Shown piece by piece: positions 12,152 to 13,905 of a stretch of 16,699 nucleotides of DNA; position 1 is the first letter of the stretch; each line of letters starts with the position of its first letter. Location: NCBI GenBank assembly GCA_021783175.1, contig JAJXUF010000067.1, positions 1 through 16,699 of the forward strand, read 5' to 3'. The translations under genes were made by a program, and so were the position numbers. The notes under the pieces were generated by a model that was given only the letters and a program-made list of their open reading frames with translations, searched no databases and was not told the DNA's origin. The DNA comes from Pseudomonadota bacterium (GTDB lineage: Bacteria; Pseudomonadota; Gammaproteobacteria; Acidiferrobacterales; UBA6901).

Positions 12152-13905
12152 TACGCGGTGACCGGCTTACGCGCAAGGATCGCGTAGTCAAGCGATGCGT
12201 GGGATGGCGCTAGTAGTTCGTTCACGACGAGCGCGCCCGGAATGTCGTCCTGCAGATAATCTGCGACATCAACCGGCCGCCCCTCAAACAGCCGCGCGAT
12301 CTCGACGAACATGAATCCGCGCGCCTCTACCATCCAACGAAGCATGTCAGGTGGCAAGGGGTTCCGGTGCGTGGGGTCCATGTAGAACGCCCACCGCGAG
12401 ACCAACGCGTTCTCCGGATTTGGTGTTTCAACGATCAGTCCTCCTCCGGGGATAAGTACTCGCAATGCTTCATCGATCAGCGCGATGAGATCGATGAAGG
12501 CCAGGTGTTCGGCGAGGTGCATCAAGGAGACCAGACCAACTGAGTTGTCCTGTAACGTCCGCAGAGTGGAGATTGCATCCCCGTCGATGACTTCTAATCC
12601 GCGACCTCTGCAGGCGTCAATGAACACCCGATTCAGCTCAACCCCTCGCGCAATGTATCCGCGCTCGCGAAGCAGCTGCAGCCATTCTCCGCGACCGCAA
12701 CCTAGATCAAATATCGGTGTCGCAGGCTTGCCAGCGCCAATCGATTCGGCGAAATCAAGATAAGGGGCAATGCGCTGGCGAATTAGATCGCGCGAACCGC
12801 GGAACTCGTCTTCGAACGCCGCATAAAGCGCGTCAAGGCCTCTGTCATCGCGGTTCCTATCGTTCAACAACCCATTCAGCTGCGCTGAAGAGTTCTCGGC
12901 ATCGATACCGGCTTCGAGTTGCGAGATTCGATCGGACTGTGAGCCAAGCTCCGAGCGCAGCTGATCTCCCTTTTTCGACGTATCATTCAACTGCTCTTGA
13001 AGTGTTTCTACACGGGCTTCGAGCTGCGAGATTCGATCGGACTGTGAGCCAAGCTCCGAGCGCAGCTGATCTTCTTTTTTCGACGCATCATTCAACCGCT
13101 CTTGAAGTGTTTCTACATGGGCTTCGAACTGCGAGATTCGATCGGACTGTGAGCCAAGCTCCGAACGCAGCTGTTCTTCCTTTTTCGACGCATCATTCAA
13201 CCGCTCTTGATGTGCATCTACATGGGCTTCAAGCAGAGCGATTCGCTCAAAATGTCGATCTAGTTCGGAACGCAACTGGTCGACTGTCACCGAGCTTGGC
13301 AACTCTGAGATCGCCGCCTCAATCGATAACAACCGCCCATCCACCTGTTCCGCCAAGGTATTCGCTACATCGCGGCAACTCTGAATTTCAGCGCTTGCCA
13401 TCGCCATATGGGTGGCTTGGCGGTCGAATAACCTACCCAACTGACCAAGCGAGATCAACCAACCCAACATAGGTCCCACGTAACGTTTCCTTCGCCACGT
13501 CCGCAGCTTATAGGGAATCAGCAGCCCATCGACGTGCACCCCATGGTGCATACCCTCGTGCGAGAACCGAAGCTGGCCTAGCACCTCTACTTTCGTAAGA
13601 TGGCCTTGGCGCAGCGCATCGACAAACCTCGTCGCGGTTTCGTCTGGTTCCCGTCGAAATAGCGCTTGATAGGCGTTGTTAATAAAATCAAAATCGTCAT
13701 AAATCAGGAGCTCACCCACAACATAAGCTTGTTTCTCGTCGATCGTGGCGCGCAGGGGCAACACACGTGGCAGGAACGCGGCGCGAACGGATTGTGGGGA
13801 GGCAGCCGTGACACTACTGTCCGATACTCGCCCCATGCCCAAACGGCCACGGATACGCCGCATTACCTCTTCGGCCGTAATTACGTTTTCGTTAACTAAA
13901 CTCAT
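12151..13905 (-). CDS. Coiled-coil SAM methyltransferase, candidate O-antigen chain terminator
   Basis: The 584 residues divide into four parts. The N-terminus has EEVMRRIRGRLG, often seen at the start of O-antigen methyltransferases. Residues about 60-125 resemble DUF4214 (DFDFINNAYQALFRREPDE, then KVEVLGQLRFSHEG). Residues about 165-345 are a long coiled coil. Residues about 370-584 are a class I methyltransferase with the SAM motif FDLGCGRGEW near 398-407, GVELN, HLAEHL, IVETPNPEN and YMDPTHRNPLPP. The coiled coil contains three 35-residue repeats plus a decayed fourth, with L, I and V at heptad a/d positions. In E. coli O8/O9a, WbdD caps the polymannose chain by methylation (and phosphorylation), and its coiled coil sets chain length. 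Placement next to wzt and rmd suggests the same job here, with the coil before rather than after the catalytic domain. No kinase domain is visible. The ATG at 13905 has only a weak ribosome binding site and lies 58 bp after wzt. Confidence 0.85.
   Translation of the reverse strand: MSLVNENVITAEEVMRRIRGRLGMGRVSDSSVTAASPQSVRAAFLPRVLPLRATIDEKQAYVVGELLIYDDFDFINNAYQALFRREPDETATRFVDALRQGHLTKVEVLGQLRFSHEGMHHGVHVDGLLIPYKLRTWRRKRYVGPMLGWLISLGQLGRLFDRQATHMAMASAEIQSCRDVANTLAEQVDGRLLSIEAAISELPSSVTVDQLRSELDRHFERIALLEAHVDAHQERLNDASKKEEQLRSELGSQSDRISQFEAHVETLQERLNDASKKEDQLRSELGSQSDRISQLEARVETLQEQLNDTSKKGDQLRSELGSQSDRISQLEAGIDAENSSAQLNGLLNDRNRDDRGLDALYAAFEDEFRGSRDLIRQRIAPYLDFAESIGAGKPATPIFDLGCGRGEWLQLLRERGYIARGVELNRVFIDACRGRGLEVIDGDAISTLRTLQDNSVGLVSLMHLAEHLAFIDLIALIDEALRVLIPGGGLIVETPNPENALVSRWAFYMDPTHRNPLPPDMLRWMVEARGFMFVEIARLFEGRPVDVADYLQDDIPGALVVNELLAPSHASLDYAILARKPVTA
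12911..13225 (-). repeat. Three tandem 105-bp repeats within the coiled-coil methyltransferase gene
   Basis: Units lie at 12911-13015, 13016-13120 and 13121-13225, each exactly 105 bp. By hand alignment they differ at 6, 7 and 11 positions pairwise (about 94, 93 and 90 percent identical), with a shared core of about 30 bases around GCGAGATTCGATCGGACTGT. A fourth, diverged partial unit follows at 13226-13285 (39 of 60 bases match). Each unit encodes 35 residues, exactly five heptads, so gain or loss of a unit preserves both reading frame and coiled-coil register. Confidence 0.95.

What the first reader, a model, noticed from the sequence alone, without database searches (positions are those of the whole stretch)
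12911..13285. In-frame, in-register 105-bp repeats: an expandable molecular ruler for O-antigen length
Three 105-bp units at 90-94 percent identity plus a decayed fourth encode a coiled coil inside a probable chain-capping methyltransferase. Each unit is 35 residues, exactly five heptads (L3, A6, E10, L13, L17, Q20, I24, L27, V31, L34 at a/d), so gain or loss changes length by about 5 nm at the usual 1.5 angstrom rise per residue without breaking frame or helix register. In WbdD of E. coli O9a the coiled-coil length sets polysaccharide length. The near identity at the DNA level implies recent duplication or homogenisation, so copy number may differ between strains and tune LPS length.
Basis: partly seen in the sequence, partly recalled or inferred. 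Interest (0 to 1): 0.82.

Follow-up and report, generated by a model that had tools for sequence, protein, structure and literature searches.

The report
Repeat-built adjustable ruler for O-antigen chains
A bacterial enzyme that probably caps surface sugar chains sits at the end of a long helical arm made of copied DNA units, and related bacteria carry the same enzyme on longer or shorter arms, so nature may tune chain length by adding or dropping units.

Summary
The repeat is real and as described: three in-frame 105-bp units (pairwise 99, 98 and 94 of 105 identical) plus a decayed fourth, in a 584-aa gene (12151-13905, minus strand). The protein has an N-terminal DUF4214-like module, a long predicted helix through the repeats and a C-terminal SAM methyltransferase. 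It lies between wzt (with carbohydrate-binding domain) and gmd/rmd-like genes.

The nearest relative (93.6% DNA identity over 9.2 kb) lacks one unit. In a related clade with a 32-aa unit, coil lengths follow 32-residue steps from 176 to 370 aa, and alleles with identical or near-identical flanks differ by one or two units. Among 254 homologues coil length varies (CV 0.39) while the methyltransferase does not (0.02), and clean coil indels mostly span whole helical turns.

So an expandable, register-preserving coiled coil is well supported. That it caps chains and sets O-antigen length is inferred from WbdD and synteny. It is no WbdD orthologue: domain order is reversed and no kinase was detected. 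Most alleles are metagenomic, so some differences may be assembly artefacts.

The parts
12151..13905 (-). Gene of the probable chain-capping methyltransferase, 584 aa
   Evidence: ORF; Pfam methyltransferase 392-534 and sub-threshold DUF4214 70-118
13552..13698 (-). DUF4214-like part of the N-terminal module (residues 70-118)
   Evidence: Pfam 21.1 bits, cut-off 23.2; above the cut-off in all 6 homologues
13411..13512 (-). Basic/hydrophobic segment, residues 132-165, candidate membrane contact at the base of the coil (inferred)
   Evidence: 6 K/R in residues 132-143, then a hydrophobic stretch of only modest amphipathicity; conserved in the consensus of 53 homologues
12946..13293 (-). Predicted continuous helix, residues 205-320, through the units
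   Evidence: AlphaFold2, 10-residue mean pLDDT mostly 79-89 between 211 and 300, falling to 51 by 311-320; one heptad register
13177..13281 (-). Unit 1 (residues 209-243), the most diverged full unit
13072..13176 (-). Unit 2 (residues 244-278)
12967..13071 (-). Unit 3 (residues 279-313)
12910..12966 (-). Partial unit 4 (residues 314-332)
   Evidence: 58 of 60 nt identical to the start of unit 3
12154..12867 (-). C-terminal SAM methyltransferase domain (residues 347-584)
13964..15205 (-). Wzt: ABC ATPase with Wzt_C carbohydrate-binding domain
   Evidence: Pfam
15202..16023 (-). Wzm: ABC-2 membrane subunit
   Evidence: Pfam
11237..12151 (-). rmd-like NAD-dependent epimerase/dehydratase
   Evidence: Pfam GDP_Man_Dehyd and Epimerase; the name rmd is inferred from the neighbourhood
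10266..11240 (-). gmd-like GDP-mannose 4,6-dehydratase
   Evidence: Pfam

Best explanation
The gene encodes the chain terminator of an ABC-transporter-dependent O-antigen, probably D-rhamnose-based. The conserved N-terminal module would hold the base of an oligomeric coiled coil at the inner membrane near the polymerase. The methyltransferase at the far end would methylate the non-reducing end of chains long enough to reach it, and the Wzt carbohydrate-binding domain would recognise the cap for export. The arm is partly built of 35-residue (five-heptad) units that are gained and lost without breaking helix register, so the ruler changes by about 5.2 nm per unit. Shown: repeats, register, copy-number difference from the nearest relative, locus. 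Predicted: the helix. Inferred: capping, membrane docking, oligomerisation, length control.
For: Domain order and predicted helix; Wzt with Wzt_C and Wzm next door; among 59 homologous loci Wzt ATPase in 49, Wzt_C in 43, Wzm in 45. Nearest relative lacks one unit: the gene is 37 aa shorter, one 35-aa unit plus 2 residues beside it. 32-residue length ladder, 12 of 14 clade members examined. Coil length CV 0.394 vs methyltransferase 0.021 in 254 homologues. Clean coil indels of 5 aa or more peak at 3.56 residues, n=85, 0 of 2000 jittered sets. P0207 has the reverse order, a different methyltransferase, coil, then the same DUF4214 module. In WbdD, coil insertions and deletions lengthen and shorten the chains (PMC5082667 and PMC6286764, passages).
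Against: No LPS or enzyme data for this architecture. Register conservation shows a continuous helix, not a ruler. Only one close relative of the window gene was found. In the partial replication the free scan peaked at 3.405, not 3.56 (69 of 2000), and with one event per length the signal is weak (126 of 2000). Of 30 pairs with methyltransferase identity 0.96 or more, 17 have the same coil length within 1 residue. In Xanthomonas campestris absence of the side branches was reported to go with a longer O-antigen main chain (PMC4878081, passages), so other controls exist. Membrane contact and oligomer state were not tested.
Confidence: 0.6

Rival explanations
1. The coil is a tolerant spacer or scaffold. 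Units expand and contract nearly neutrally because any whole number of turns is harmless; O-antigen length is set elsewhere (enzyme ratio, side branches, transporter).
For: The register-preserving indel pattern is expected of any long coiled coil under weak length constraint. Branch mutants alter chain length in X. campestris (PMC4878081, passages).
Against: In WbdD the coil length does change chain length (PMC5082667, PMC6286764, passages). A coiled-coil ruler is described as the mark of this assembly strategy (PMC11231755, passages and discussion part 1).
Confidence: 0.3
2. Part of the copy-number variation is an assembly artefact: short reads collapse or miscount near-identical units.
For: P0124/P0125 and P0080/P0090 are identical over all 370 sampled flanking residues and differ only in near-identical units. 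Many of the proteins carry only metagenome-type source tags.
Against: The window and its relative differ in the units and in the flanks alike. P0118 is listed on 10 contigs from three sources; P0116 has an NCBI name, Rhodanobacter denitrificans. The ladder spans proteins whose flanks are down to about 61% identical.
Confidence: 0.08
3. The methyltransferase decorates the chain internally or acts on another surface glycan, and is not a terminator.
For: No substrate is known; the domain fold is a common class I methyltransferase.
Against: Linkage to Wzt with a carbohydrate-binding domain; JGI labels several homologues 'O-antigen chain-terminating methyltransferase', an automatic name.
Confidence: 0.15

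Closest known systems
WbdD of E. coli O9a (kinase/methyltransferase O-antigen terminator with coiled-coil ruler)
   Same: Methyltransferase joined to a long coil, in an ABC-transporter O-antigen locus with a Wzt carbohydrate-binding domain
   Different: WbdD has methyltransferase and kinase at the N-terminus and the membrane/polymerase end at the C-terminus; here the methyltransferase is C-terminal, no kinase was detected, and a DUF4214-like module is N-terminal
Klebsiella O7 ORF6 and O4 ORF7 terminators (PMC11231755)
   Different: O7 has an N-terminal methyltransferase-kinase and C-terminal glycosyltransferases; O4 uses a Kdo transferase
E. coli O101/O162 MT (PMC13168486)
   Same: Methyltransferase plus coil, needed for the O-methyl cap; its authors suggest a ruler (passages)
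   Different: Methyltransferase N-terminal, coil C-terminal
Xanthomonas campestris WxcB (PMC4878081)
   Same: Required for a rhamnan O-antigen in the same bacterial order (passages; polar effects were not excluded there)
   Different: Described as similar to the methyltransferase and kinase parts of WbdD
Proteins labelled 'O-antigen chain-terminating methyltransferase' by JGI
   Same: Homologues found by sequence
   Different: An automatic label; no experiment on this architecture was found in the papers searched

Membership tests
WbdD (E. coli O9a type) | N-terminal methyltransferase followed by a kinase domain | tested here: not met
   Methyltransferase is C-terminal; no kinase family among the Pfam and NCBIfam matches
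WbdD (E. coli O9a type) | Long coiled coil separating the catalytic end from the membrane end | tested here: inconclusive
   Predicted helix and one heptad register support a coil; oligomerisation and membrane contact not tested
WbdD (E. coli O9a type) | Coil length determines chain length | not testable with these tools
   Natural length alleles identified but no LPS data
Coiled-coil terminators of ABC-transporter-dependent glycans (functional class) | Encoded beside Wzm/Wzt with a carbohydrate-binding Wzt | tested here: met
   Window genes; 49, 43 and 45 of 59 homologous loci have Wzt ATPase, Wzt_C and Wzm
Coiled-coil terminators of ABC-transporter-dependent glycans (functional class) | Terminating enzyme at one end of the coil, base module at the other | tested here: inconclusive
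   Domain order fits and P0207 shows the mirror order, but that the DUF4214 module is the base is inferred
Coiled-coil terminators of ABC-transporter-dependent glycans (functional class) | Adds a non-reducing terminal cap that stops polymerisation | not testable with these tools
   Needs glycan structure and mutants
Class I SAM methyltransferases | Sequence and fold of the family | tested here: met
DUF4214 (PF13946) | Match above Pfam's gathering score | tested here: not met
   21.1 against 23.2 bits for the window protein; met by all 6 homologues and both

The most novel reading that the evidence does not exclude
The repeats are an evolvable tuning knob. Recombination between in-register units within populations repeatedly resizes the terminator's ruler in fixed steps (about 5 nm here, 4.8 nm in the 32-residue clade) while the enzyme stays unchanged, so lineages and even strains change O-antigen modal length stepwise: a length-variation counterpart to on/off phase variation.
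Probability: 0.3. Interest if true: 0.82.

Novelty: new variant of a known kind. Interest (0 to 1): 0.62.

Why it matters
The ruler role of the coil is known from engineered WbdD insertions and deletions (PMC5082667, PMC6286764, passages). Natural alleles that share nearly the same catalytic and base domains but differ by whole coil units would let the ruler model be tested on evolution's own series, and would show how bacteria can change surface-polymer length without touching the enzyme. It contrasts with coils kept at constant length, such as synaptonemal-complex proteins, where indels are depleted in the coil (PMC8598163, passages). No description of tandem-repeat-driven coil-length variation in an O-antigen terminator was seen in the searches. 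These cover openly licensed papers only, most hits were seen as listings, and the 2015 ruler paper itself is not held.

Tried and rejected
WbdD orthology: rejected on domain order and lack of a detected kinase. Chance repeat: rejected by codon shuffles. Aligner bias as the cause of the helical-turn pattern: 300 simulated deletions were recovered, 299 at the exact length, with no periodicity.

Results against the pattern. The N-domain control was not flat in the first test (n=47, gaps of 3 aa or more, peak 3.75, p 0.0035); with gaps of 5 aa or more it was flat (n=19, 1128 of 2000). In the partial replication on 29 events from tree edges with newly found proteins the free scan peaked at 3.405, not 3.56 (69 of 2000), although at fixed 3.56 none of 5000 jittered sets reached the observed value. 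With one event per length the signal is weak (126 of 2000; p 0.012 in the smaller set). Clean events off whole turns include 10, 15, 17, 26, 49, 52 and 58 aa, and the window's own gap (37 aa: 35 plus 2). Tree edges share nodes, so events are not independent. In one search, 7 of 206 N-terminal parts also reach the repeat threshold of 8. In the 32-aa ladder P0088 and P0208 do not fit. The homologue lists are the best 120 of 455, all 96, and the best 120 of 320, scored among capped candidates. Two of 256 proteins (P0207, P0241) lacked an anchor and were dropped. P0141/P0143 is not used as an allele example: their C-terminal ends are offset in the simple comparison (23/220).

Led nowhere: plasmids, no match; the family search round G001, since G001 is a Chitinophagaceae MAG holding a contig that looks foreign; the genus search with P0121, 1 of 45 genomes. 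First anchor patterns failed for 72 of 120 proteins and were replaced by BLAST anchors.

Full report

Setting. Neighbours are Wzt with a Wzt_C carbohydrate-binding domain, Wzm, a gmd-like and an rmd-like gene and glycosyltransferases. The locus borders on etfA-like and phosphomannomutase-like genes. DNA of that border matches 251 of 348 genomes of one order at E 1e-100 or better, etfA at up to 89% identity; that order is the one of a Stenotrophomonas genome (L006 = G295), so the host belongs to the Lysobacterales/Xanthomonadales by inference. The source assembly is not held. A homologue at E 1e-30 or better occurs in 17 of the 348 genomes, and in at least 13 of the 17 it lies within 25 kb of the listed etfA or phosphomannomutase match (positions). 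Among 59 loci from genome contigs, Wzt ATPase is found in 49, Wzt_C in 43 and Wzm in 45.

Copy number varies. The nearest relative, contig SCQT01000279.1 (L005/L092), aligns at 93.6% over 9,236 columns and has two full units plus a partial one; the window has three plus a partial. The gap in the alignment is 111 bp, one unit plus two codons beside it. Within each genome parts of neighbouring units are more alike (41/45, 43/45) than orthologous positions between genomes (37/45), the mark of homogenisation or repeated duplication; whether the window gained or the relative lost a unit is open. In homologues with a 32-aa unit, coil lengths are 176/177, 208-210, 274, 304-306, 338 and 370: 12 of 14 members examined fit 176 + 32k within 2 residues. 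P0118 and P0122 are 150/150 identical before the coil and 213/220 at the C-terminus, and differ by one unit (32 aa). P0124 and P0125 are 150/150 and 220/220 identical and differ by two (64 aa); P0080 and P0090, also 150/150 and 220/220, differ by three 18-aa units. Of 30 pairs with methyltransferase identity of 0.96 or more, 13 differ in coil length by 3 residues or more and 17 do not. AlphaFold2 of P0120 (six units) gives helices 265-389 and 394-519 through them, at modest confidence (mean pLDDT 64.9).

A family pattern. In 254 anchored homologues coil length has a CV of 0.394, the N-terminal part 0.163 and the methyltransferase 0.021. In 206 homologues 54 have coil repeats scoring 8 or more, where 180 shuffles of 60 coils reach at most 6; 7 of 206 N-terminal parts and no methyltransferase part reach 8. 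At DNA level 16 of 56 relatives, L005 among them, have coil repeats above all 560 codon shuffles, with best units of 7, 11, 12, 14, 22, 25, 27, 31, 32, 35, 43, 49 and 74 residues; 1 of 56 methyltransferase parts passes the same mark. Clean coil indels of 5 aa or more between near neighbours have a spectral peak at 3.56 residues (n=85, R 0.63, 0 of 2000 jittered sets); of those up to 70 aa, 58 of 77 lie within 0.6 residue of whole turns, where 30% of integers do. Limits of this test are told in Tried and rejected.

Topology. P0207 carries a different (FkbM) methyltransferase at its N-terminus, a coil-like stretch, then the same DUF4214 module near its C-terminus (127/277 identical to P0120). 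It is one metagenomic sequence on one contig. With the window type it puts the enzyme at the far end from the shared module in both orders, as a ruler would need. FkbM-side relatives of P0207 occur in 20 of 348 genomes of the order, 13 of them within 30 kb of the listed etfA match on the same contig, so another such methyltransferase may fill the same place there; none of the listed matches covers both halves in one frame.

Mechanism and limits. In WbdD the coil holds the capping site about 20 nm from the membrane, and insertions or deletions in it lengthen or shorten the chains (passages of PMC5082667 and PMC6286764; also PMC3482155, passages, and PMC11231755, passages and discussion part 1). 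By analogy the window protein would cap chains that reach its methyltransferase. Its two predicted helices total about 25.7 nm if straight, and one unit is about 5.2 nm. Capping, membrane docking, oligomer state and length control are inference. Register conservation shows a continuous helix, not a ruler; the neutral-spacer rival stays open.

Verdict. Observation confirmed; interpretation partly supported; a reversed architecture and a repeat-driven mode of length change within the known class of coiled-coil O-antigen terminators.

Noticed in passing
L005 / L092 (SCQT01000279.1, G001:C142): The nearest relative of the window lies in a MAG labelled Chitinophagaceae, while the window's border genes match Lysobacterales; the contig looks misbinned.
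   Followed up: partly
P0207 (692 aa): FkbM methyltransferase, coil and DUF4214 module in the mirror order of the window protein; FkbM-side relatives sit near etfA in 13 of 20 genomes that have them.
   Followed up: partly
window 4789-7896: One 1035-aa protein with one GT2 and two GT4-type glycosyltransferase domains, possibly a multi-module polymerase for the chain.
   Followed up: no
window 1-16699: G+C falls from 0.68 and 0.60 in the first two kb (etfA and phosphomannomutase end) to 0.48-0.58 in the rest, as if the glycan cluster was acquired.
   Followed up: no
window 4187-4792: 201-aa lipoprotein-like ORF with no Pfam match inside the cluster.
   Followed up: no
3dli_A (Archaeoglobus fulgidus): Chain numbering 253-473 suggests the archaeal structure is the C-terminal domain of a longer protein of perhaps similar layout.
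   Followed up: no
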